DNA of 64,000 nt from assembly GCF_001999725.1 (NCBI RefSeq), contig NZ_MDDP01000034.1, positions 1-64,000 of the forward strand, given 5' to 3'. Positions 40,997 to 62,640 of this stretch are shown here, in pieces. The notes beneath the pieces are model-generated. The model saw only the letters and a list, made by a program, of their open reading frames with translations, did no database searches and was not told the origin of the DNA. Position numbers and translations under genes: made by a program. Each line of letters begins with the position of its first letter. The first letter of the stretch is position 1. The stretch comes from Cellulophaga omnivescoria (GTDB taxonomy: Bacteria; Bacteroidota; Bacteroidia; Flavobacteriales; Flavobacteriaceae).

Positions 40997-43528
40997 ATGA
41001 AAAAAAAGTACTTCGTTTTTGTCGCTATGTTATTATGTACGGCATTCGCATTTTCTCAAGGAACCATCACTGGTAAAATTATGGATGGTGATTTAGGAGG
41101 ACCTCTACCAGGAGCAAGTGTAGTTGTAAAAGGAACTACAAATGGTATGGCTGCCGATTTTGACGGTAACTTTACTATTTCTGCACCTAGTAACTCTGGT
41201 GTATTAGTTGTATCATACATAGGATACATCACCAAAGAAGTAAGCTTTAATGCTGTTGGAGATTTAGGTAAAATTACATTAATGCCAGACGCTGAAGCTC
41301 TAGAAGAAGTTGTTATTGTAGCTTCTGTAGCTGTAGACAGAAAAACTCCGGTTGCTGTTTCTACTATTAAAGCTGCTGACATTGAATTAAAATTAGGAAC
41401 TCAAGAATTTCCTGAGGTATTAAAATCTACACCTGGTGTATACGCTACTAAATCTGGTGGTGGTTTTGGTGATGGTAGAATTAACCTTAGAGGTTTTGAT
41501 TCTGAAAACGTTGCTGTAATGATTAACGGTGTACCTGTTAACGATATGGAAAACGGTAGAGTATACTGGAGTAACTGGGCTGGTTTATCAGACGTTACTT
41601 CTTCTATGCAAGTACAAAGAGGTTTAGGTGCTTCTAAAGTAGCTGTACCTTCTATTGGTGGTACAATTAACATCTTATCTAAAACTACTGACGTAGAAAG
41701 AGGTGGTAGTATTATTGGTGGTGTTGGTAACGACGGATACCAAAAATATGGTGCTACAATATCAACAGGTTTAATGGATAATGGATTTGCTGCAACAGTA
41801 TCTGCATCTAAAACAACTGGTGAAGGTTATGTAGATGGTACACAATTTAATGGTTTTAACTACTTTGTGAACATATCTAAGCAAATTAACGACGATCACA
41901 AATTATCTTTAACTTCTTTTGGTGCACCACAAACACACGGTCAACGTCAAAACAGAAGTTCTATTGACACTTACAGAAATGCTGAAAGTGGTATTAGATT
42001 TAACCCAGATTGGGGATACAAAAACGGTCAAGTTACTCATATAGAAGATAACTTCTACCACAAATCTCAAACATCTTTAAACCACTATTGGAATATTGAT
42101 GACAAATCTATTTTATCTTCTGCTTTATATGCCTCTTGGGGTAAAGGTGGTGGTGGTGGTACTGCTGGTAACACAGACTTATTTAACACTAGATTAGGTG
42201 GTTTTGATCAACCAGTAGACTTAGACAACATCGTAGAAATTAACCGTGAAAACGGTCGTCAAGGTTTTGGATCTGAGGCATACTTAAGAGCATCTATAAA
42301 CAACCACGAGTGGTTTGGATTTTTATCTACTTACAAAAACTCTTTAACTGAAAACTTAGATTTATTAGTAGGTATTGACTTAAGAGATTACACAGGAGAT
42401 CACTATTCTGAAGTTACTGATTTATTAGGTGGTAGCTATGCATTAGATAATGACAACGAGAATAACCCAAATGCTAGATTACAAGTTGGTGACAAGCGTC
42501 AGTACCACAACGTTGGTAATGTAGGCTGGCAAGGTTTCTTTGCACAAGCAGAGTACTCACAAGACAAGCTTTCTGCATTTTTATCTACAGCTATCTCAAA
42601 CACATCTTACCAAAGAATAGATTACTTTAACTATTTAGACTCTGATCCTGATCAGAAGACAGACAGATATAACTTTTTAGGTTATAGTGTAAAAGGTGGT
42701 GCTAACTACAATTTAGATGACAACCATAATGTTTTTGCTAACATTGGTTACTTTGAAAAGGCTGCAAACTTTGGCGGTGTATTTGTTGGATTTGACAACG
42801 AAAACCAAAACCCAGATGCAGAAAACCAAAAAATATTTAGCGCAGAAATAGGATACGGTTACCGTAGTGAAAAATTAGCTGCAAACCTTAACATTTACAG
42901 AACTACTTGGAATGACAGAACTGAAACAGCTACATTTAACAATCCTGATGGAACTTTAGGTACTGCAAACATATTAGGAGTAAATGCATTGCACCAAGGT
43001 ATAGAATTAGACTTTACTTATAGAGCTACAGAAGAGTTAACAATAACAGGTATGGCTTCTTTAGGAGACTGGAGATGGCAAAACAATGTTACTGATGTAG
43101 AAATTTTTGACGAAGATCAAAATTTAGTTAATACTGTAGATATCTTTATTAAAGACTTACGTGTTGGTGATGCTGCACAAACTACAATGGCTTTAGGACT
43201 TAACTACGAAGTTATGCCTAAAACTAACTTAATCATAGATTACAACTACTATGATAACTTATACGCTAACTACGATCCTAGTGACCGTGGAGACTCTTCT
43301 ACACCAGAAGCTTGGAAAGTTCCAGATTATGGTTTATTTGACGCTGGTTTAAGACACGGTTTCAAATTAGGTGAATATGATACAACTATCACTTTAAGAA
43401 TGAACAATGTATTTGATACAAGATACATTGCAGATGCGCAAGATGGTTCTGATCACGACGCATTAACAGCTAGCGTTTTCTACGGTTTTGGTAGAACTTT
43501 TAGTGTTAGCACAAAAATTAGATTTTAA
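40997..43528 (+). CDS. TonB-dependent receptor with carboxypeptidase-like N-domain
   Basis: About 843 aa from the ATG giving MKKKYFVFV, the first codon of the signal peptide; a GTG 36 bp upstream gives an unlikely charged extension. Domain order: signal, CarboxypepD_reg-like domain (GTITGKIMDGDLGGPLPGAS), plug with GGGFGDGRINLRGFDSEN and NDMENGRVYWSNWAGL, then the barrel ending in VSTKIRF. The plug motif NDMENG...WSNWAGL is shared, in altered form, with the second receptor of this block. It is followed 19 bp later by a repeat lipoprotein in the position usually held by SusD, then by nucleases. Confidence 0.93.
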   Translation: MKKKYFVFVAMLLCTAFAFSQGTITGKIMDGDLGGPLPGASVVVKGTTNGMAADFDGNFTISAPSNSGVLVVSYIGYITKEVSFNAVGDLGKITLMPDAEALEEVVIVASVAVDRKTPVAVSTIKAADIELKLGTQEFPEVLKSTPGVYATKSGGGFGDGRINLRGFDSENVAVMINGVPVNDMENGRVYWSNWAGLSDVTSSMQVQRGLGASKVAVPSIGGTINILSKTTDVERGGSIIGGVGNDGYQKYGATISTGLMDNGFAATVSASKTTGEGYVDGTQFNGFNYFVNISKQINDDHKLSLTSFGAPQTHGQRQNRSSIDTYRNAESGIRFNPDWGYKNGQVTHIEDNFYHKSQTSLNHYWNIDDKSILSSALYASWGKGGGGGTAGNTDLFNTRLGGFDQPVDLDNIVEINRENGRQGFGSEAYLRASINNHEWFGFLSTYKNSLTENLDLLVGIDLRDYTGDHYSEVTDLLGGSYALDNDNENNPNARLQVGDKRQYHNVGNVGWQGFFAQAEYSQDKLSAFLSTAISNTSYQRIDYFNYLDSDPDQKTDRYNFLGYSVKGGANYNLDDNHNVFANIGYFEKAANFGGVFVGFDNENQNPDAENQKIFSAEIGYGYRSEKLAANLNIYRTTWNDRTETATFNNPDGTLGTANILGVNALHQGIELDFTYRATEELTITGMASLGDWRWQNNVTDVEIFDEDQNLVNTVDIFIKDLRVGDAAQTTMALGLNYEVMPKTNLIIDYNYYDNLYANYDPSDRGDSSTPEAWKVPDYGLFDAGLRHGFKLGEYDTTITLRMNNVFDTRYIADAQDGSDHDALTASVFYGFGRTFSVSTKIRF

Positions 43529-43547
43529 TTAAAAAAGTATATTTAAG

Positions 43548-44681
43548 ATGAAAAAAATTATTTATTCACTAATCGCAATTGGGTTATTCTTAACCTCTTG
43601 CGACCCAATGGAAGACATTAACAAAGAGTTAAATGTTTTAAATGCTATTGACTCTGAGATAGGAAACATTGAGTATACATTTACTGAGGACGATTACAAA
43701 GATTTCTTTGAGTTTGACTTTGCTAACTTTAGTTCTGTAGACGATGCAAAAGCATTAATACCTAACTACTTAACAGAAACTTACCCATTTTTAGGTGTAA
43801 CTTACGATAATGATATAGAAATTGAGCAGGTTTCTACAGCTTTAGTTACTTTTGATTGGTACAACAGAATACCAACTTATGAAGCAGAAATTAGAGTATT
43901 AACTGCAGAAGAACATAATGAAATTACAGGTCAAACATTTGGAAATTTTTCTGATGAAGATCATGTATTTGAGTTCTTAGCTGCTGAATACCCTGCTGCT
44001 GAAGAAGGTGATTTTGTTTCTTTACGTTATGAGTACTACGCTGGTAGTACTACTGAGCTTACAGATGGTTTCTTATTTGAAAACGGAGAGTGGACTAGAT
44101 TTGTTGGTTTTACACCTGCAGAATATAACGCAATGGGAGAAAGCTACCCTAACTTTTCTAGCCATGATGAAGCAGCTTTAAAAATACCTGTTACTTTACC
44201 AGAACGTTTTAAATTTGACGCTAAAGAAGCTGGTGATATTGTAGTTGCAACTTATGAGCTTTACACTAAAGTAGGAGAAGATGCAGACGGTAACGACATT
44301 AGAGGAACTGTTACTTACACTAGCAATTTTATATTTGACGGTGCTAACTGGTCTAAATACAATAATGTTGCTACAGAAACTATTCAGTTTGCTCATGACG
44401 GTACTACTTGGGTACCAGACAACACAATTAAATATACGTTAACTGCTGCAGATTACGCTTCAGTAGGAAACGGACAGTATAACAATTTTGATGTAAGAGA
44501 AGGAAAAGCTGAAGCTACAGTTGAATCTAGATTAGCTAAAATAAATACAATTTTATTAGCTAACTTCCCTGATGCTGAGGAAGGTCAAAAATTCTCAGTA
44601 ACATACAGTGTATATTCAGGTTCTAATGAAGTTTGGATTATGAATGTTATTTTAGAAGGTGGAGCATACGTTCTACAATAA
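43548..44681 (+). CDS. Lipoprotein made of four internal repeats, TonB-receptor partner
   Basis: A 377-aa lipoprotein (lipobox LTSC, Cys18). Residues 41-377 contain four copies of one module: a T-x-(E/A)-(D/E)-Y/H start, an NF(S) step, a helix, then EEG and a Y-x-Y strand pair ending in (F/L)xxGxW or similar. Boundaries are about 41-116, 117-187, 188-293 and 294-377. Copies 2 and 4 are closest. No SusD TPR fold is seen. Transcribed right after the TonB receptor and ended by a strong terminator. I do not recognise the family; ligand capture at the cell surface is an inference from position. Confidence 0.7.
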   Translation: MKKIIYSLIAIGLFLTSCDPMEDINKELNVLNAIDSEIGNIEYTFTEDDYKDFFEFDFANFSSVDDAKALIPNYLTETYPFLGVTYDNDIEIEQVSTALVTFDWYNRIPTYEAEIRVLTAEEHNEITGQTFGNFSDEDHVFEFLAAEYPAAEEGDFVSLRYEYYAGSTTELTDGFLFENGEWTRFVGFTPAEYNAMGESYPNFSSHDEAALKIPVTLPERFKFDAKEAGDIVVATYELYTKVGEDADGNDIRGTVTYTSNFIFDGANWSKYNNVATETIQFAHDGTTWVPDNTIKYTLTAADYASVGNGQYNNFDVREGKAEATVESRLAKINTILLANFPDAEEGQKFSVTYSVYSGSNEVWIMNVILEGGAYVLQ

Positions 44682-44703
44682 TAGGCTAACATTTTAAAAA
44701 ATT

Positions 44704-44737
44704 AACCTCTGTCTATAACTAGACAGAGGTTTTTTTA
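44704..44737 (+). terminator. Strong terminator after the repeat lipoprotein
   Basis: A 12-bp perfect stem AACCTCTGTCTA / TAGACAGAGGTT with a TAAC loop and a following T run, 23 nt past the stop. Confidence 0.95.
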
Positions 44738-44822
44738 TTAATACAGTTTAATATCAAAAAAAACAAAAAGCTTAAATTAGCAGAATATTATTTTATAAGT
44801 ATCAATTTACTATTAAGACGAG

Positions 44823-46202
44823 ATGATGATGAAATTTATTTTAAATATTAAAAACTACGCATACACTATACTATTATCAGTTATTATGTTAGGATGCAGT
44901 AGCTCTGATGGAGGTACAGAACAACCAGACCCAGACCCAACTCCTGTAAACAAACCAATTGCTGTAGATGATGAAGTAACAGGTATAGAAAACGAAGATT
45001 TAATTATAAGTAACCTTTTAGAAAATGATTCTAGAATAGGAGCCAAAATAACTTCTTTTGACGCTACCAGCACTGGTGGCGCCACAATTATTGAAAATAG
45101 AGATGGCACATACACATATACTCCTAAAGCAGATTTTATAGGCGTTGATTCATTTACATACACAATATGTGATACTGAAGAAACTCCCAACTGTTCTACA
45201 GCTACAGTAACAGTTTCTATTGTAGATGAAGGAGACCCTCTAGCAGTAGATGATGCCTATGCAACAGTAGAAAATACAGCTACCACAATTACAACTGCTT
45301 TAGATAACGACACTATTATTGATGATGCTATATTAACTTCTGTAGACGGCAGTGGATCTAGTGGAACTGTAGAACTTAACAGTAACGGAGAAATTGTGTA
45401 TATACCACAAAGCAACTTTACTGGTAACGATACTTTTACATATACCATTTGTGATAACGATAAGCCTAATGCTACTTGCTCAACAGCAACAATTACTATT
45501 ACGATTGCCGAAAAACTAAGTTTTAATATACCCGCAGAATTACAAGAATATTATTCTAACGTTGCTTTTAGCAACAATGCAGAAGTTACCTTAAACGCTT
45601 TAAAAGAGCACACAACTAACAAACACACAACTATTTTATCTTACGGGCAAAGACACAATTATTTGTATAACGCAGACGAAGATGAAACTATAGCAGACAA
45701 CGTAATTTTAATGTATTCGGGTGAAAGTAGAGACCACAGAGAATATCAGTCAGGTTCTAATAGTCATTCTCCACAAACATTTAATACAGAACATATTTTC
45801 CCACAGTCTAAATTAGGTTCTAATATCGCAGTTTCAGATTTACACCATTTACGTTCTTGTGATGCTATTGTAAATGAAGACAGAAGTAATTTTGCGTATA
45901 CAGATGGCTCTGGGGATTACAAACTAGTAGGCACCAACAAATGGTATCCTGGTGACGATTGGAGAGGAGATGTTGCACGTATGGTACTTTACTTAAATAT
46001 TAGATATAATGAAGATATTACACAAGTAGGCACATTAGATTTATTTTTAGAATGGAATGTAGCAGACCCAGTATCTGGTTTCGAAATTCAACGTAATAAC
46101 GTAATTGAAGAGGCACAAGGAAACCGAAACCCATTTATAGACAATCCTTATTTAGCTACAATTATTTGGGGTGGTAACGAAGCAGAAAATAAATGGGAAT
46201 AA
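44823..46202 (+). CDS. Surface lipoprotein endonuclease I with two Ig/cadherin-like repeats
   Basis: A 459-aa lipoprotein: signal ending MLGC, then SSSDGG. Three consecutive ATGs could start it. Residues about 45-135 and 140-230 are two similar beta domains, each opening VDD...T.EN...L.ND and closing FTYTICD...CSTATxTxxI. The C-terminal 225 residues are an endonuclease I (EndA/NucM) domain with SYGQRHNYLY, the metal-site NTEHIFPQS and DLHHLR. This would degrade DNA at the cell surface. No type IX sorting domain follows; the lipid anchor retains it. It has neighbours on both sides of TonB receptors. Confidence 0.9.
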   Translation: MMMKFILNIKNYAYTILLSVIMLGCSSSDGGTEQPDPDPTPVNKPIAVDDEVTGIENEDLIISNLLENDSRIGAKITSFDATSTGGATIIENRDGTYTYTPKADFIGVDSFTYTICDTEETPNCSTATVTVSIVDEGDPLAVDDAYATVENTATTITTALDNDTIIDDAILTSVDGSGSSGTVELNSNGEIVYIPQSNFTGNDTFTYTICDNDKPNATCSTATITITIAEKLSFNIPAELQEYYSNVAFSNNAEVTLNALKEHTTNKHTTILSYGQRHNYLYNADEDETIADNVILMYSGESRDHREYQSGSNSHSPQTFNTEHIFPQSKLGSNIAVSDLHHLRSCDAIVNEDRSNFAYTDGSGDYKLVGTNKWYPGDDWRGDVARMVLYLNIRYNEDITQVGTLDLFLEWNVADPVSGFEIQRNNVIEEAQGNRNPFIDNPYLATIIWGGNEAENKWE

Positions 46203-46250
46203 GTCAAAAAAACCTTATTTTTTATTACTTTTATAGTTAAACAATTTACT

Positions 46251-46688
46251 ATGTATACTACAATTTTAAACTTACATTCTTACTTTGCTTTTATAGTTTT
46301 AGCTATCTTAATTTTAGCTGTTATAAATGCTATTTCTGGGTTAACATCTAAAAGGGATTTTAACTTAGGTAAAGACTTTAGAGTGTCATTATTTGCACTA
46401 ATATTATCGCATTTACAGCTACTAATTGGCCTAATTTTATTTTTTGTATCGCCTAACGGATTAGAAGCAATTACAAGCAACGGAATGGGCGGACTAAGTT
46501 CTGCAGCTCGTTTGCTAGCCGTAGAGCATCCATTTATAAACATAATTGCAATAGTACTTATTACAATTGGGTGGTCTAAACACAAAAAAGTAATGGAGAG
46601 CGCTAAAAAATTTAAATTAATAGCCATTTTTTATGGCTTAGGATTACTATGCCTTTTAAGTAGAATTCCTTGGGGACAATGGTTTTAA
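46251..46688 (+). CDS. Four-helix membrane protein, cytochrome-b-like
   Basis: A 145-aa membrane protein with four hydrophobic helices. Histidines lie in or near the helices (NLHSYFAF in helix 1, SHLQLLIG in helix 2, VEHPFINI in helix 3, WSKHKK after it), the arrangement that leads databases to label such proteins cytochrome b-like. Haem binding is not demonstrated. It ends WGQWF. It stands between the endonuclease I gene and the convergent EEP nuclease gene, and a bidirectional terminator follows. Whether it belongs to the nuclease locus is unclear. Confidence 0.65.
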   Translation: MYTTILNLHSYFAFIVLAILILAVINAISGLTSKRDFNLGKDFRVSLFALILSHLQLLIGLILFFVSPNGLEAITSNGMGGLSSAARLLAVEHPFINIIAIVLITIGWSKHKKVMESAKKFKLIAIFYGLGLLCLLSRIPWGQWF

Positions 46689-46712
46689 AATAAATACAAA
46701 AAACAAAATACT

Positions 46713-46747
46713 AAAAAACCAAGTGATACACTTCACTTGGTTTTTTT
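46713..46747. terminator. Bidirectional terminator
   Basis: A 14-bp stem AAAAAACCAAGTGA / TCACTTGGTTTTTT with a short loop and T or A runs on both sides, between two convergent genes. Confidence 0.9.
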
Positions 46748-46764
46748 GCCTAAAAGCAGACAAA

Positions 46765-47826
46765 TTAATTATCCTGTTTTCTAATTAAATAAATATAAAC
46801 TGGAAAATGATCACTATAACCACCAGTATAACTACCACCAGAATAAGTTCTTTTAGGGTAACCTTTATACCTACCCTTATCGGTTATTAAAAAAGGTGCT
46901 GAATATATAAATGCCTTCCAAAAGGAGTATGTTTTACGCTCTTTATTTACAAGGTTACCTGTAAAATAAATTTGATCAAAAATATTCCATTTATCTCTAT
47001 AAGCTAAGGAACCTTCACCTTTCCTGTACAACTCATCCATAGGATTAAACAATATACTATCTGAAACCTTTTTTAATCTACCTTCAGTTTGTAGCACCTT
47101 TTTAAAACTCTTGTTAATTGGGTCATCATTAAAGTCGCCCATACTAATAATTTTAGCATTTATATTTAAACGCCTAACAGAGTCTATAATCTTTTTATTA
47201 AGCTTAGCCGCCGCAATTCTATTAGGCCTACTACGGGCTTCACCTCCACTTCTAGATGGCCAATGGTTTACTATAAAGTAAACCTCCTCATCATCTAACA
47301 AACCACCAACAATTAATTGGTCTCTTGTATAGTCCCTATAATTATTATCCTTAAACAATAATAGCCTATGACTTTTAAATGATGTTGGTATAAAAGCATC
47401 CTTTTTATAAAGCAACGCTACATCAATACCTCTTTCATCAGGAGAGTTATAATGTATAACTCCATACCCCTTATTTATTAATGCTGGTTGCTGAATTAAA
47501 TCTGTTAAAACCGTATCATTTTCCACCTCACAAACACCAATTATATCTGGAGATGAATTAGTAACACTACTACCAATTTTAGCCAATGTAGTAGACATAT
47601 TTTTAAGTTTTGCCATATACCTACCGCTAGTCCACTTATCTTTTCCTAATGGCGTACGATCATCATCAAAAGTATTAGGATTATTAATTGTGTCAAATAA
47701 ATTTTCCAAATTGTAAAAAGCAATAGTTCTAATTTGATAACGTTGGTTAGACTGAGCCATTAAATCCAACTCTGTACATAAAAAAATTATCAAGAAAAAA
47801 CTTATATATTTACATTTGATATTCAT
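46765..47826 (-). CDS. Secreted endonuclease/exonuclease/phosphatase family protein
   Basis: A 353-aa protein with a signal peptide (1-24, ending MAQ) and an EEP-fold domain (PF03372/PF19580). All key positions are visible: IAFYNLENLFD, CEVEND with the metal-binding Glu, VNHWPSRSGG with the catalytic His, MGDFNDDP with the Asp/Asn pair, and GYSDHFPVYI with the final Asp-His. DNase, RNase or phosphodiesterase activity is possible. It diverges from the second TonB receptor over a 65-bp gap containing a 16-bp palindrome, suggesting shared control. Confidence 0.9.
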   Translation of the reverse strand: MNIKCKYISFFLIIFLCTELDLMAQSNQRYQIRTIAFYNLENLFDTINNPNTFDDDRTPLGKDKWTSGRYMAKLKNMSTTLAKIGSSVTNSSPDIIGVCEVENDTVLTDLIQQPALINKGYGVIHYNSPDERGIDVALLYKKDAFIPTSFKSHRLLLFKDNNYRDYTRDQLIVGGLLDDEEVYFIVNHWPSRSGGEARSRPNRIAAAKLNKKIIDSVRRLNINAKIISMGDFNDDPINKSFKKVLQTEGRLKKVSDSILFNPMDELYRKGEGSLAYRDKWNIFDQIYFTGNLVNKERKTYSFWKAFIYSAPFLITDKGRYKGYPKRTYSGGSYTGGYSDHFPVYIYLIRKQDN

Positions 47827-47852
47827 TTTATTAGCAATTTTTCATATAAAAA

Positions 47853-47868
47853 TAAGGAAATTTCCTTA
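47853..47868. promoter_or_regulatory. 16-bp perfect palindrome between nuclease and TonB receptor genes
   Basis: TAAGGAAATTTCCTTA is a perfect inverted repeat without spacer, in the 65-bp gap between divergent genes. It is 26 bp from the nuclease start and 23 bp from the receptor start, so one bound factor could control both. Confidence 0.5.
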
Positions 47869-47871
47869 AAA

Positions 47872-47891
47872 AACTCTATTTTCACAGAGTT
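47872..47891 (+). promoter_or_regulatory. Hairpin directly before the second receptor start
   Basis: AACTCT (47872-47877) pairs with AGAGTT (47886-47891), ending at the base before the ATG. In a transcript it would fold just in front of the start codon. A translational effect is possible but untested. Confidence 0.3.
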
Positions 47892-50624
47892 ATGCGATTG
47901 TTTGCCAATATTTTATCTTTATTATTTGCAGTAAATATAGTAGTTGCTCAAGGTAAATATACCATTAAAGCAACCGTAGAAGATCCACAAAAAAAATCAT
48001 TACAATTAGCTGGTACTGTAGATATACAAGAGACAAACTCTACCACAAGTATTATAAATAATGCTTTCAAAATATCTGTTAACAAAGGCAACTACATCAT
48101 AAAAATTACGGTTAAAGATTACAGCACAGTAAAGCTACCAATAACAATTACAAACCAAAATATAGATTTGGGTACTATTTATTTACAGAAAGATATTACC
48201 GTTGAGAAAGTAGATAACTTAATAACCTTAACAGATACAGCCCTATCTGAAGAAGAAACCAGTACAATTACTTCGGGCTTATTACAAGCAACCAGAGACG
48301 TGTTTTTATCAAGAGCAGCCTTTGATTTTGGACAGGCTTTTTTTAGAGTTAGAGGATACGATTCTAAATATAGCAAAGTATTAATAAATGGTATTGCTAT
48401 GAATAATATTAGTGATGGAAGACCTCAATGGAATAACTGGGGAGGATTAAATGATGTCACAAGAAACCAAGAATTTACTTATGGACTACAACCTGCCAAG
48501 TATAGTTTTGGTGGTATTTTAGGAACAACAAATATTAACACACAACCGTCTAAAATGAGACCTGGAACAAGAGTTTCATTTTCTGCAGCAAACAGAACTT
48601 ATACAGGACGCGCAATGACTACCCATACATCATCAACAAACAAAAAAGGGATAACCTACAGCATATCTGCCTCTAGAAGATGGGCAAAACAAGGATATTT
48701 AAATGGAACATTATATGATGCATATTCAGTATTTGGCGCCTTGGAATACAAGTTAAATTCAAAAAACACATTATTAGCAACAGCAATAGCTGCAACTAAC
48801 CGTAGAGGCAGGTCTTCTGCAGTAACAGAAGAAGTCTTTTTATTAAAAGGAAGAAAATATAATCCGTATTGGGGCCTACAAAACAAAAAAATTAGAAATT
48901 CTAGAGAACGTAAAATTACGCAACCGATTTTAATGTTTAATCATATTTATACAACTAAAAACGCAACTATAAATACAGGGGTTAGTTACAAATTTGGCCC
49001 ACATAAAAAAAGTAGGTTAGGCTACTACAATGCTCCAAACCCAGATGCTACATACTACCGTTATCTTCCTAGTTTTTATATAAATAGTCCAATTGGCGCT
49101 AATTTTGAAAGTGCAGAAACAGCAAGACAATCGTTTATTAAAAACTCTCAAATAAACTGGGGTAATATTTATAACGCAAATAACACTTATGAAGATGCTA
49201 AGGCATCTTATGTTTTATATAATGATGTTGTAGATGATAAAATTATAACTTTTAACTCTACGGCAAATATTACAATTAACAAACATTTCACTATAGATTC
49301 TGGTATATTATACAAAAACCTCAGCACTAAAAATTATGCTATTATTGATGATTTATTAGGAGCAGAATACCATTTGGATATTGACACATTCTCTAACACT
49401 AGCAATGATGTTAATGGAAATAACAACAAAACAAACAATCAAATTTTTAGCTATAACTACAACTTAACCGCAAATAATTTAAATGCATTTGCACAAATAA
49501 AAGCTACATATAAAAAGTGGTATGCATCTTTGGCTATAAACACAAATACAATTAGTTACCAAAGAAACGGTTTATTTAAAAATGAACGCTACCCAGAAAC
49601 ATCAATAGGACAAAGCAAAAAAGTAAATTTTAATGCACTAAATTTTAAAGGATCTTTTACCTATAAAATAAATGGGAGACATTGGGTTAATGGCAAATTT
49701 GCATTTATAAAAAAACCTCCAACAATACAAAATACCTTTATTAACCCAAGAGAAAACAATGCTGTTGTTAACAATATTAAAAACCAAACAATTAGAACAG
49801 GAGATGTAAATTACTTTATACGCTTGCCAAAACTTACTGGTCGTGTTTCTGCATTTTACTCTCTGTTTAATCACGAAACTGATGTTAATTTCTTTTTTGT
49901 AGAATCTGGAATTGGGTCTGACTTTGTACAGGAGGTAGTTACAGGAATAGACAAAAAACACAAGGGTATTGAAATTGGCTTGGAATATGAGTTATCTTCT
50001 TCCGTTAAAGTTACAGGAGTAGCAGCAATAGCAGACTACACCTACAATAACAACCCTAATGTTACTATAAATTTTGACACCACTAACAATGATGAAAATG
50101 CAATAAACTTAGAAGGATATAGCAACTTAGGAGAAAGCAACATTAAAAATTACAAGCTTGCTCAAGGACCACAAAAAGCAATTGCAATAGGCTTAGAGTA
50201 TAGAGATCCTAAATACTGGTGGATTAGTGGCTCTGCTAACTTTTTAGGTAATAACTACGCTAATATATCTACCATTACCAGAACCCGTAGTTTTTACTTA
50301 AACCCAGACACAAATGAACCCTTTACAGACGCTACCCCAGAGAACGTAAACAAATTACTTGCTCAAAATAAAATGAAAGATTTTTACTTACTAAACATTG
50401 TTGGCGGAAAATCTTGGATTATAAATGGCAAATATGTTAGTGTATTTGCTAGTGTTAATAATGTGTTTGATACCGTTTTTAAAACTGGTGGTTATGAACA
50501 GAGTAGAAACGGAAACTACGGACAAATGAAACAAGACAATTTAAGCACCACCCCATCATTTGGCACTAAATACTGGTATGGCTATGGGCGTACATTCTTT
50601 TTAAACTTAGCAATTAGTTTTTAA
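47892..50624 (+). CDS. TonB-dependent receptor of the nuclease locus
   Basis: A 910-aa receptor: signal peptide (1-19, ending VVAQ), a diverged carboxypeptidase-like domain (about 22-100), a plug with GQAFFRVRGYDSKYSKVLING and NNISDGRPQWNNWGGL, and a barrel ending in FLNLAISF with terminal Phe. It belongs to the same subgroup as the receptor at 40997 by the shared NG...N(D/N)..(N/D)G...W(S/N)NW(A/G)GL plug motif. The lipoprotein gene starts 1 bp after its stop, so the two form a unit. No SusD homologue is present. The ligand is inferred from the flanking nucleases. Confidence 0.92.
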   Translation: MRLFANILSLLFAVNIVVAQGKYTIKATVEDPQKKSLQLAGTVDIQETNSTTSIINNAFKISVNKGNYIIKITVKDYSTVKLPITITNQNIDLGTIYLQKDITVEKVDNLITLTDTALSEEETSTITSGLLQATRDVFLSRAAFDFGQAFFRVRGYDSKYSKVLINGIAMNNISDGRPQWNNWGGLNDVTRNQEFTYGLQPAKYSFGGILGTTNINTQPSKMRPGTRVSFSAANRTYTGRAMTTHTSSTNKKGITYSISASRRWAKQGYLNGTLYDAYSVFGALEYKLNSKNTLLATAIAATNRRGRSSAVTEEVFLLKGRKYNPYWGLQNKKIRNSRERKITQPILMFNHIYTTKNATINTGVSYKFGPHKKSRLGYYNAPNPDATYYRYLPSFYINSPIGANFESAETARQSFIKNSQINWGNIYNANNTYEDAKASYVLYNDVVDDKIITFNSTANITINKHFTIDSGILYKNLSTKNYAIIDDLLGAEYHLDIDTFSNTSNDVNGNNNKTNNQIFSYNYNLTANNLNAFAQIKATYKKWYASLAINTNTISYQRNGLFKNERYPETSIGQSKKVNFNALNFKGSFTYKINGRHWVNGKFAFIKKPPTIQNTFINPRENNAVVNNIKNQTIRTGDVNYFIRLPKLTGRVSAFYSLFNHETDVNFFFVESGIGSDFVQEVVTGIDKKHKGIEIGLEYELSSSVKVTGVAAIADYTYNNNPNVTINFDTTNNDENAINLEGYSNLGESNIKNYKLAQGPQKAIAIGLEYRDPKYWWISGSANFLGNNYANISTITRTRSFYLNPDTNEPFTDATPENVNKLLAQNKMKDFYLLNIVGGKSWIINGKYVSVFASVNNVFDTVFKTGGYEQSRNGNYGQMKQDNLSTTPSFGTKYWYGYGRTFFLNLAISF

Positions 50625-50625
50625 T

Positions 50626-51978
50626 ATGATTTTAAAAAAATACCTAACAATAAGTATCTCATTTTTTTTAATAATAAGCTGTGTTAAGGACAAGGATTTT
50701 AACATTCCAGAAACCAAATGTGCAGAACTGGCATACAACTTAAGCTTAATTAACTTAAACACTATTACTGAGGGTGGTATTACACAAGTGCAAGAAGACA
50801 TAATTATAGAAGGCTATATTGTATCATCAGATATTGAAAATAATTTTTTTGGAACAATACACATTCAAGACAAAGCTATAGACCCTACAACCGGCATTTC
50901 TTTCCTAGTAGATTTAAGAGATTATTATTTACAATACAAACTAGGACAAAAAGTAATTATAAAGTTAAAAGGACTCTACATTGCTAAAAAAAATAATACA
51001 TATGTAATTGGCGGTGTTTTTACATCCTTTGGAAACCAAACTGTTGGCAGATTACCTAGCTTACAAGTGCAAGAACACATGTATACAACCTGCAGCAACC
51101 CACCCACCCAAGCAACAGAAAGCACTATAGAAAATTTAACAGCAAGCAAAATTAATACACTTGTAGTTTTAAACAATGTAGAGTTTATTGAAGAAGAATT
51201 GAATAACACATTTGCAAATAAAAATGAAGAAACAGAACGCACTATTAAAGATTGCGTTGGAAACCAAATAAAGCTAGTTAACAGTGGTTATGCAGATTTT
51301 GCAACTAATATACTACCTAATAAAAGCGGAAATATTACAGCTGTTTTAATTGAAGATAAAAACGAATTAAAACTAAAAATTAGATCATTAACTGATATAG
51401 ATTTTACTCAAAACCGCTGTGCGCCTATTGTAACAGAATTTACCTCAACCTCTGTATTTTTCTCTGAACTAGCAGACCCTAACAATAATACCGGCGCAAG
51501 GTTTATAGAGCTATACAACTCTAGCAACGAAGCTTTAGACTTAAACAATTGGAAAATTAATAGGTACACCAACGCAAGTACAGATATTAGCTCTAGCTTA
51601 GACCTAACTGGCTATAGTATTAATGCAAAAAGTACGCTTGTAATTTCGCCAAATAAAGATGAGTTTGTTGCAACCTACGGTATTGAACCAGACATAAGCA
51701 TAGGTAAAAATAGCGTAGCAGATTCTAATGGCGATGATAATTTAGTGCTAATAGACCCATTTGGCACTACTATAGATGTTTTTGGTGTTATTGGCGAAGA
51801 TGGCACTAATACCAATCATGAGTTTGAAGACGGAAAAGCGCTAAGAAAAGAATCAATAAATACAGGCTCTAACAACTACCAATTTAACCAGTGGTTTATA
51901 TTTAACGACACAGGTAATAATAACACTACAAATTTACCACAAAATGCACCTGAAGACTTTACGCCTGGAGAACACTAA
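50626..51978 (+). CDS. DUF5689 and lamin-tail-domain lipoprotein
   Basis: A 450-aa lipoprotein: lipobox IISC (Cys19). The region about 35-265 fits DUF5689 (IIIEGYIVSSDIENNFFGTIHIQD, KLGQKVIIKLKGLYI), an OB-like domain in Bacteroidota surface proteins. Residues about 280-430 form a lamin-tail (LTD) domain: FSELADPNNNTGARFIELYN, NEALDLNNWKINRY. LTDs often accompany secreted nucleases and have been proposed to bind nucleic acid or anchor to the surface. It starts 1 bp after the receptor gene and overlaps the convergent response-regulator gene by 4 bp. Likely the surface-exposed partner of that receptor. Confidence 0.88.
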   Translation: MILKKYLTISISFFLIISCVKDKDFNIPETKCAELAYNLSLINLNTITEGGITQVQEDIIIEGYIVSSDIENNFFGTIHIQDKAIDPTTGISFLVDLRDYYLQYKLGQKVIIKLKGLYIAKKNNTYVIGGVFTSFGNQTVGRLPSLQVQEHMYTTCSNPPTQATESTIENLTASKINTLVVLNNVEFIEEELNNTFANKNEETERTIKDCVGNQIKLVNSGYADFATNILPNKSGNITAVLIEDKNELKLKIRSLTDIDFTQNRCAPIVTEFTSTSVFFSELADPNNNTGARFIELYNSSNEALDLNNWKINRYTNASTDISSSLDLTGYSINAKSTLVISPNKDEFVATYGIEPDISIGKNSVADSNGDDNLVLIDPFGTTIDVFGVIGEDGTNTNHEFEDGKALRKESINTGSNNYQFNQWFIFNDTGNNNTTNLPQNAPEDFTPGEH

Positions 51979-61875: not shown

Positions 61876-62640
61876 ATGAAAATAGTATCCTATAACGTTA
61901 ACGGTATTCGCGCAGCAATTAATAAAGGTTTTATAGATTGGCTTACCGCTACAGACCCAGATGTTATATGCCTTCAGGAAATAAAAGCCCTTAAAGAGCA
62001 GTTAGATTTATCTTTGTTTGAAGAGGCTGGCTACAGCTATAACTATTGGTATAGCGCACAAAAAAAAGGCTACAGCGGTGTTGCTATTTTATCTAAAATA
62101 GAACCAGATAATGTTACTTATGGCACAGGTATAGATTATATGGATTTTGAAGGCAGAAATATTAGAGCAGATTTTGGAGATATTTCTATTATGAGTATGT
62201 ATCTACCATCTGGTACAAATTTGGCTAGACTAGATTTTAAACTAAAATATATGGATGACTTTCAGAAATATATTAATGAATTAAAAAAAGACAAACCTAA
62301 TATTGTTGTATTAGGAGATTATAATATATGTCATGAAGCTATAGATATACATGATCCTGTACGTAATAAAAACGTATCTGGCTTTTTACCTGTAGAACGA
62401 GAATGGATTGGAAATTTTATAAAAAGCGGTTTTATAGATAGTTTTAGATATTTTAACACAGAGCCACACAACTACTCTTGGTGGAGCTACAGAGCTAACG
62501 CAAGAAACAATAATAAAGGTTGGCGATTGGATTACGGAATGGTTAGCAAAACCTTAGAAAACCGCCTTAAAAGAGCTGTTATATTAAAAGAAGCTAAGCA
62601 TAGTGACCATTGCCCAATTTTAGTAGAACTAAAAAATTAA
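61876..62640 (+). CDS. xth: Exodeoxyribonuclease III (AP endonuclease)
   Basis: A base-excision-repair nuclease that cuts at abasic sites. The 254-aa cytoplasmic EEP-fold protein has every landmark of the ExoIII/Nape type: KIVSYNVNGIRAAINKGF, DVICLQEIKALKEQ with the metal-binding Glu, NIVVLGDYNICHEAIDI with the Asp/Asn pair, WRLDYGMVSK and KHSDHCPILVEL with the catalytic Asp-His. Unlike the secreted EEP protein at 46765, it has no signal peptide. The galM gene follows 21 bp later on the same strand. Confidence 0.96.
   Translation: MKIVSYNVNGIRAAINKGFIDWLTATDPDVICLQEIKALKEQLDLSLFEEAGYSYNYWYSAQKKGYSGVAILSKIEPDNVTYGTGIDYMDFEGRNIRADFGDISIMSMYLPSGTNLARLDFKLKYMDDFQKYINELKKDKPNIVVLGDYNICHEAIDIHDPVRNKNVSGFLPVEREWIGNFIKSGFIDSFRYFNTEPHNYSWWSYRANARNNNKGWRLDYGMVSKTLENRLKRAVILKEAKHSDHCPILVELKN

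What the first reader, a model, noticed from the sequence alone, without database searches (positions are those of the whole stretch)
40997..51978. Candidate extracellular nucleic-acid scavenging locus with two TonB receptors and two secreted nucleases
Seen: two TonB receptors sharing a plug motif, each followed within 1-19 bp by a lipoprotein that is not SusD; between them an endonuclease I lipoprotein and a signal-peptide EEP nuclease; the EEP gene and the second receptor diverge across a perfect palindrome. Known: TonB-receptor/lipoprotein pairs import products made by surface enzymes, and LTD domains accompany secreted nucleases. Inference: this block degrades environmental DNA or RNA at the surface and imports fragments, nucleotides or phosphate, replacing SusD with new partner lipoproteins. 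No nucleoside permease or phosphatase operon adjoins, so the internal half would lie elsewhere.
Basis: partly seen in the sequence, partly recalled or inferred. Interest (0 to 1): 0.75.

Follow-up and report, generated by a model that had tools for sequence, protein, structure and literature searches.

The report
TonB-type DNA-uptake (transformation) gene cluster
Part of this stretch, a nuclease gene, an outer-membrane receptor and its lipoprotein, is the flavobacterial version of genes that the duck bacterium Riemerella needs for natural transformation, so it more likely brings DNA into the cell than digests it as food, and the nuclease kept beside it is an untested candidate for a missing piece of that machinery.

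Summary
The genes are as described, but they are not one locus. The conserved core is a triad at 46765-51978: a secreted PF19580 nuclease (EEP), divergent from a TonB-type receptor (R2) followed by a DUF5689 lipoprotein. In 86 fetched genomes of the same family DUF5689 follows R2 in 84, and the EEP sits divergently upstream in 79 of the 84 with enough flank. The first receptor, its lipoprotein and endonuclease I are linked in only 32, 13 and 6 of 72.

R2 and the DUF5689 protein are counterparts of RA0C_RS04915/RS04920 of Riemerella anatipestifer, whose markerless deletion abolishes natural transformation (PMC8459023). A named Riemerella record has comEC, two genes, EEP, R2, DUF5689 in line. 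The window's genome has comEC, dprA, HHH and DUF1343 genes and no secretin. DUF5689 models as tandem OB folds resembling DNA-binding HIN-200 and RPA domains.

So 'DNA import' is right in direction; nutrient scavenging is less likely than transformation. New and untested: the EEP may be the entry nuclease missing where ComEC lacks its nuclease domain, as here. The palindrome is not conserved.

The parts
46765..47826 (-). EEP: exported Exo_endo_phos_3 (PF19580) nuclease, divergent from R2; counterpart of the gene between the carboxylase gene and R2 in Riemerella (inferred RA0C_RS04910)
   Evidence: PF19580 403 bits; 41% identity to the Riemerella protein; E102, H188, D231, N233, D284, D339, H340 invariant in 158 of 158 aligned rows (157 loci, the Riemerella one twice); hydrophobic N-terminus in 148 of 157, lipobox in 4 of 157 (regular-expression test).
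47892..50624 (+). R2: outer-membrane protein with TonB-dependent-receptor fold; counterpart of RA0C_RS04915
   Evidence: match in 94 of 100 same-family genomes at E <= 0.001 (90 of 100 at E <= 1e-50; the 4 weak ones are in the range of R1-type cross-matches) and in 116 of 120 genomes of Riemerella's family at E <= 1e-60; 33% identity over full length to the Riemerella protein; model pLDDT 83.7, Foldseek best hits Fiu, PqqU/YncD, FhuA, OprC.
50626..51978 (+). DUF5689 + LTD lipoprotein; counterpart of RA0C_RS04920 (DUF5689 + DUF5017)
   Evidence: PF18942 209.7 bits; residues about 31-260 modelled at pLDDT 90 or more as tandem OB folds, Foldseek best hits HIN-200 and ssDNA-binding OB domains; follows R2 in 84 of 86 same-family loci.
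47853..47868 (.). 16-bp perfect palindrome between EEP and R2; not conserved, no role assigned
40997..43528 (+). R1: paralog of R2; facultative neighbour, not part of the core
   Evidence: 32 of 72 same-family loci; 1 of 22 other loci with enough upstream sequence.
43548..44681 (+). Repeat lipoprotein paired with R1; facultative
   Evidence: 13 of 72 same-family loci; 14 of 86 with an iterated profile.
44823..46202 (+). Endonuclease I (PF04231) lipoprotein; sporadic neighbour
   Evidence: 6 of 72 same-family loci; 7 of 86 with an iterated profile.
46251..46688 (+). 145-aa membrane protein of unknown role, neighbour of EEP
   Evidence: 58 of 77 same-family loci; 1 of 76 others.

Best explanation
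The core EEP - R2 - DUF5689 (46765-51978) is the outer-membrane DNA-uptake module of a natural-transformation system that works without a secretin. Steps: (1) the DUF5689 lipoprotein on the outer membrane binds DNA with its tandem OB folds (inferred from the model); (2) DNA crosses the outer membrane through R2, energised by TonB (inferred; tonB mutants of Riemerella transform less); (3) in the periplasm a HHH protein holds the DNA and the exported EEP nuclease cuts it or removes one strand (speculative, about 0.3); (4) ComEC moves single strands inward and DprA/RecA recombine them (established elsewhere, and genetically required in Riemerella). Shown here: homology, gene order, presence of comEC, dprA, HHH and DUF1343 genes. 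Shown elsewhere: need for the Riemerella counterparts of R2 and DUF5689. Not shown: transformation in the window's own organism, DNA binding, nuclease activity.
For: Markerless deletion of RA0C_RS04915 or RS04920 drops transformation below detection (PMC8459023). The named R. anatipestifer locus L147 and the unnamed L135 (93% identity in R2) have comEC, 145-aa gene, carboxylase, EEP, R2, DUF5689 in order: three genes between comEC and R2, as tags RS04895 to RS04915 in steps of five require. Window against L135: R2 33%, EEP 41%, DUF5689 29% over 281 columns. R2 occurs in 90 of 100 same-family genomes at E <= 1e-50 and 116 of 120 of Riemerella's family. EEP divergent next to R2 in 79 of 84 and 77 of 81 loci, DUF5689 behind R2 in 84 of 86 and 80 of 82. 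Own genome has comEC, dprA, HHH, DUF1343 genes and no secretin. OB-fold model of DUF5689 with HIN-200/RPA hits. tonBA and tonBB mutants of Riemerella transform less, tonBA without an iron defect (PMC8383284).
Against: Identity to Riemerella is only 29-41%. comEC lies near R2 only in Riemerella's genus: 4 of 83 other loci, 0 of 86 same-family loci. The lipoprotein's C-terminus differs (LTD here, DUF5017-like there). Flavobacterium johnsoniae, said to hold homologs of all the Riemerella proteins, was not competent under the conditions tried, and its authors list weak PilB/C/F/Q/T homologs there as a possible pilus-type system (PMC7965970 section 14, PMC8459023 discussion). The EEP was not among the hits of the 3000-mutant screen and RS04910 is not mentioned in the main text. 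In an order-wide sample EEP is directly divergent from R2 in only 31 of 42 R2-bearing genomes; 8 of the 11 misses fall in one genus of 10 sampled members. PF19580 also occurs in 43 of 106 genomes without R2. TM-scores to HIN-200 domains are low (TMq about 0.24, TMt up to 0.42). The authors of PMC8383284 read the tonB effect as nutritional.
Confidence: 0.72

Rival explanations
1. Nutritional scavenging: nucleases at the surface degrade environmental DNA or RNA and the receptors import fragments, nucleotides or phosphate for growth.
For: Exported nucleases, the EEP with conserved catalytic residues, lie beside two receptor/lipoprotein pairs. The receptor is kept in most genomes of a family in which competence was reported not to be universal (PMC7965970 abstract). 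The same genome has a second endonuclease I, in a T9SS-tailed protein that also holds a DUF5689 domain.
Against: The Riemerella counterparts are essential for transformation. Endonuclease I and R1 are absent from most of the fetched neighbourhoods (present in 6 and 32 of 72). No permease or phosphatase gene beside the triad in the window.
Confidence: 0.15
2. The EEP is a periplasmic or surface nuclease that opposes uptake (defence against incoming DNA, or clearance of DNA from the receptor), not one that helps it.
For: Its gene is divergent from R2, not in one transcript, and no transposon hit in it was reported as transformation-defective.
Against: Conserved adjacency to the uptake pair in two families and a clade separate from the other PF19580 gene of some loci suggest a joint function, but do not tell its direction.
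Confidence: 0.25
3. R2 and DUF5689 import some other ligand (metal, vitamin, nucleotide) whose loss in Riemerella abolishes transformation indirectly.
For: Riemerella transformation depends on iron, phosphate and peptone (PMC8383284 abstract). R2 has the ordinary TonB-dependent-receptor fold, nearest to siderophore, PQQ and copper receptors.
Against: Complete loss of transformation in both single deletions, linkage to comEC in Riemerella, OB folds in the lipoprotein.
Confidence: 0.12

Closest known systems
Riemerella anatipestifer transformation pair RA0C_RS04915/RA0C_RS04920 (PMC8459023)
   Same: Receptor with carboxypeptidase-regulatory domain followed by a DUF5689 lipoprotein, EEP divergent upstream; full-length homology of R2 and EEP.
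   Different: Not beside comEC here (comEC on contig C12, window on C28); LTD instead of a DUF5017-like C-terminus; extra neighbours R1, repeat lipoprotein, endonuclease I.
SusC/SusD-type nutrient import pairs
   Same: TonB-dependent receptor followed by a lipoprotein.
   Different: No SusD match in either lipoprotein; R1 scores 111.6 against a cut-off of 368.25 for TIGR04056 and R2 has no NCBIfam hit.
ExeM/NucH extracellular nucleases
   Same: The DUF5689-LTD protein matches part of the ExeM model (E 1.1e-12) and the EEP part of the ExeM/NucH model (E 2e-7); ExeM's LTD, OB and EEP domains are recalled.
   Different: Here the parts are two genes, one a lipoprotein beside a receptor; scores far below the cut-offs (46.9 against 1300, 30.2 against 300).
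EndA of Streptococcus pneumoniae (passages of PMC8579336 and PMC6299819)
   Same: Proposed role: degrade incoming DNA outside the inner membrane before ComEC.
   Different: Different nuclease family (EndA's family recalled); role of the EEP untested.
Type IV pilus competence systems of Vibrio, Neisseria, Haemophilus
   Same: Downstream part: HHH protein, ComEC, DprA.
   Different: No secretin in the window's genome; a TonB-type receptor is proposed in place of pilus and secretin.

Membership tests
Riemerella-type transformation DNA-uptake pair | Receptor homologous over full length to RA0C_RS04915 | tested here: met
   33% identity over 941 columns; one match in the own genome at E <= 1e-60. 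RA0C_RS04915 itself was not fetched by name; L135/L147 stand for it by gene order.
Riemerella-type transformation DNA-uptake pair | DUF5689 lipoprotein gene directly behind the receptor | tested here: met
   1 bp behind; 84 of 86 same-family loci.
Riemerella-type transformation DNA-uptake pair | Rest of the kit in the genome: ComEC, DprA, HHH and DUF1343 families | tested here: met
   by family only, not by orthology. ComF and RecA were not searched.
Riemerella-type transformation DNA-uptake pair | Loss of either gene abolishes transformation | not testable with these tools
   Known only for Riemerella.
SusC/SusD nutrient import system | SusD-family lipoprotein beside the receptor | tested here: not met
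   no SusD family match in 43548-44681 or 50626-51978.
Type IV pilus competence system | Outer-membrane secretin (PF00263) | tested here: not met
   0 matches in the own genome (listed as 100% complete); the same search rings in 6 of 14 control genomes.
EEP (DNase I-like) nuclease | Catalytic residues of the fold present | tested here: met
   E102, H188, D231, N233, D284, D339, H340 invariant in 158 of 158 rows; their assignment to catalysis is recalled from DNase I.
EEP as transformation entry nuclease | Deletion impairs conversion of incoming DNA to single strands | not testable with these tools
   No test seen in the listings; no library search named this nuclease itself.
OB-fold protein (DUF5689) | Fold matches solved OB domains that bind DNA | tested here: met

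The most novel reading that the evidence does not exclude
Flavobacterial transformation uses a self-contained outer-membrane module unlike the pilus systems: a tandem-OB-fold lipoprotein (DUF5689) as DNA receptor, a TonB-powered receptor barrel as the DNA gate, and the conserved divergent EEP as the long-missing entry nuclease that makes single strands for a ComEC without its own nuclease domain.
Probability: 0.3. Interest if true: 0.87.

Novelty: new member of a known kind. Interest (0 to 1): 0.62.

Why it matters
How DNA crosses the outer membrane without a type IV pilus, and how the non-transforming strand is removed where ComEC lacks its nuclease domain, are open: PMC8579336 calls the second 'an open and interesting question', and PMC6299819 reports the DUF4131 + Competence form as the main one in Bacteroidetes (passages). 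The triad gives one named candidate for each step (DUF5689 binds, R2 transports, EEP cuts), found together in most sampled genomes of two families, so the question becomes three gene deletions and two protein assays. It would also suggest that the capacity for competence is widespread in flavobacteria, which matters for gene transfer in water and in hosts.

Tried and rejected
Palindrome as a conserved operator: rejected, 1 of 157 intergenic regions. Whole block as one operon: rejected on linkage counts and terminator-like sites. Promoter scan: 37 hits against 49.3 in shuffles, uninformative. PF01223 nuclease near comEC in the own genome (L134) as a better entry nuclease: among 20 genomes that I chose it is in 10, and in 0 of the 4 of genus g161 (Riemerella's, by the contig shared with L147), so not general. 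EEP profile against PDB sequences: no hit at 1e-3; R2: weak partial hits only; DUF5689 profile: one good hit, 8jiy, to the C-terminal part only. NCBIfam's M949_1556 lipoprotein family matches the DUF5689 protein at 169.7 bits, under its cut-off of 475; 12 papers name M949_1556 (listing only, none read for it).

Counts: a first labelling used receptor profiles that had absorbed R1 into R2 and mislabelled some receptors; the figures used are those of the clean count (one search gave the same 79 of 84 and 84 of 86). In one search R1, its lipoprotein, endonuclease I and the membrane protein were sought with single sequences, EEP and DUF5689 with two each, so divergent forms of the former may be missed; iterated profiles gave 14 and 7 of 86 for the lipoprotein and endonuclease I. 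Left out before counting: of the 93 other genomes with a match, 4 weak ones (G004, G030, G032, G092) and 3 fragments (G037, G058, G067); as duplicates L147, L163, L186, L193; and, from each denominator, loci with too little flank. Misses: EEP in L046, L077, L113, L115, L118, L130, L140, L143, L190; DUF5689 in L046, L116 (split receptor), L129, L130. A Fisher test of R2 against PF19580 presence (42 of 42 against 43 of 106, p 2e-13) ignores phylogeny and is not used as evidence.

Papers: PMC8459023 sections 18, 20, 21 and passages; PMC8383284 abstract and passages; PMC7965970 abstract and section 14; PMC6299819 and PMC8579336 passages; all others search listings only; no supplements. In this library one paper each holds 'DUF5689' and 'RA0C_RS04915', the same one. 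The search returned nothing. EndA's family, ExeM's domains, the DNase I catalytic residues and the pathway beyond ComEC are recalled. Cas1/Cas2 and the anchor-J reading of C-termini are by eye.
Full report
OBSERVATION. The genes of the finding are there. R1 (40997-43528) and R2 (47892-50624) are TonB-receptor-type proteins that align over their full length at 23% identity. Each is followed by a non-SusD lipoprotein, after 19 and 1 bp. Between them lie an endonuclease I lipoprotein, a 145-aa membrane protein, and on the other strand an EEP-family nuclease with a signal-peptide-like N-terminus. The palindrome before R2 is a perfect 16-mer.

IS IT ONE LOCUS? No. R2 has a match in 94 of 100 genomes of the same family, one per genus, at E <= 0.001, and in 90 at E <= 1e-50. 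I fetched up to 20 kb around it in 86 of the 93 other genomes (4 weak matches and 3 fragments left out) and added 83 further loci, mostly of Riemerella's family (four duplicates removed). The clean count gives, same family / others: DUF5689 behind R2 84 of 86 / 80 of 82; EEP divergent upstream of R2 79 of 84 / 77 of 81; R1 upstream 32 of 72 / 1 of 22; its repeat lipoprotein 13 of 72 / 0 of 22; endonuclease I 6 of 72 / 0 of 22; 145-aa membrane protein 58 of 77 / 1 of 76; comEC nearby 0 of 86 / 4 of 83. An order-wide sample is less uniform: R2 occurs in 42 of 148 genomes at E <= 1e-60 and the EEP is directly divergent in 31 of those 42, with 8 of 11 misses in one genus. Terminator-like hairpins lie between PGI and R1, between R1's lipoprotein and endonuclease I, and between the membrane protein and EEP. 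The core is therefore EEP-R2-DUF5689.

WHAT THE CORE IS. The one paper in the library that mentions DUF5689 is the transposon screen for natural transformation in Riemerella anatipestifer (PMC8459023). There RA0C_RS04915, an outer-membrane protein with carboxypeptidase-regulatory domain, and RA0C_RS04920, DUF5689 + DUF5017, were essential; markerless deletion of either brought transformation below detection. I looked for that locus. In the family f5, which holds it, R2 matches occur in 116 of 120 genomes. The named record NZ_QXHU01000005.1, R. anatipestifer CCUG25054 (L147), is 93% identical in R2 and has the same order. Tags in steps of five from RS04895 (ComEC) to RS04915 leave room for exactly three genes, as found, so the EEP should be RS04910; this mapping is an inference. 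Window against L135: R2 33% over full length, EEP 41%, DUF5689 29% over 281 columns.

THE REST OF THE KIT. The own genome (listed as 100% complete) has one comEC, one dprA, one DUF1343 gene, a 290-aa protein with an N-terminal hydrophobic stretch and tandem HHH motifs, and no secretin. These are family matches; orthology to the Riemerella genes was not tested, and ComF and RecA were not searched.

R2. The model has the ordinary TonB-dependent-receptor fold. Riemerella tonBA and tonBB mutants transform less, tonBA without an iron defect (PMC8383284), which fits TonB-powered DNA import, although its authors suggest a nutrient effect.

EEP. E102, H188, D231, N233, D284, D339 and H340 are invariant in all 158 aligned rows; they correspond to the DNase I catalytic set as I recall it. 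Of 23 other PF19580 genes in the fetched loci, 21 form a separate clade with support 0.996 and no R2-linked member; the two others are in L143 and L190. ComEC of the own genome and of Riemerella match only DUF4131 and Competence, not the metallo-beta-lactamase domain, the main form in Bacteroidetes (PMC6299819). PMC8459023 leaves the double- to single-strand step to an unidentified protein, and PMC8579336 names it an open question for such ComECs. An exported nuclease fixed beside the uptake pair is a natural candidate. Against it: not among the hits of the 3000-mutant screen and not mentioned in the main text; not adjacent in 8 of 10 sampled members of one genus. The PF01223 nuclease near comEC in the own genome is absent from the 4 searched genomes of Riemerella's genus. 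EDTA inhibits transformation in R. columbina and divalent cations restore it (PMC7965970 abstract), compatible but unspecific.

VERDICT. R2 and DUF5689 are a new member of the Riemerella-type transformation uptake pair (0.72). What I did not see in print, in the listings (open-licence papers only, and no search that named this nuclease), is the EEP as a conserved third component and the OB-fold reading of DUF5689. The organism's own competence is untested, and F. johnsoniae, said to have all homologs, failed to transform under the published conditions.

Noticed in passing
L122:3007-8673 (G000 contig C1): 1888-aa protein with endonuclease I, fn3, DUF5689, SprB repeats and a T9SS sorting tail: DUF5689 in one protein with a nuclease domain.
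   Followed up: partly
downstream of DUF5689 in loci between L051 and L117: A second PF19580 nuclease gene lies downstream in 20 of 80 same-family loci and falls in its own clade.
   Followed up: partly
L134:6061-6867 (G000 contig C12): PF01223 DNA/RNA non-specific endonuclease about 6 kb from comEC in the own genome.
   Followed up: partly
L038:7268-10591 and L042, L044, L057, L085, L093, L096, L105, L109: The slot of R1 before the 145-aa membrane protein holds instead an open frame of 1049-1108 aa; the one scanned (L038) matches OMP_b-brl_4 and carboxypeptidase-regulatory domains.
   Followed up: no
L135:17991-19218: Behind the DUF5689 gene of Riemerella lie genes that read like cas2 and cas1 (by eye, not tested).
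   Followed up: no
L143 (G308), also G285 and G298: A second, more distant R2-type receptor (about 635 bits against 840) with, in L143, DUF5689 and a same-strand EEP behind it; G308's contig has the length of an Elizabethkingia miricola record.
   Followed up: no
window 61876-62640: Another EEP-superfamily protein (PF03372, 101.6 bits), no PF19580 match.
   Followed up: no
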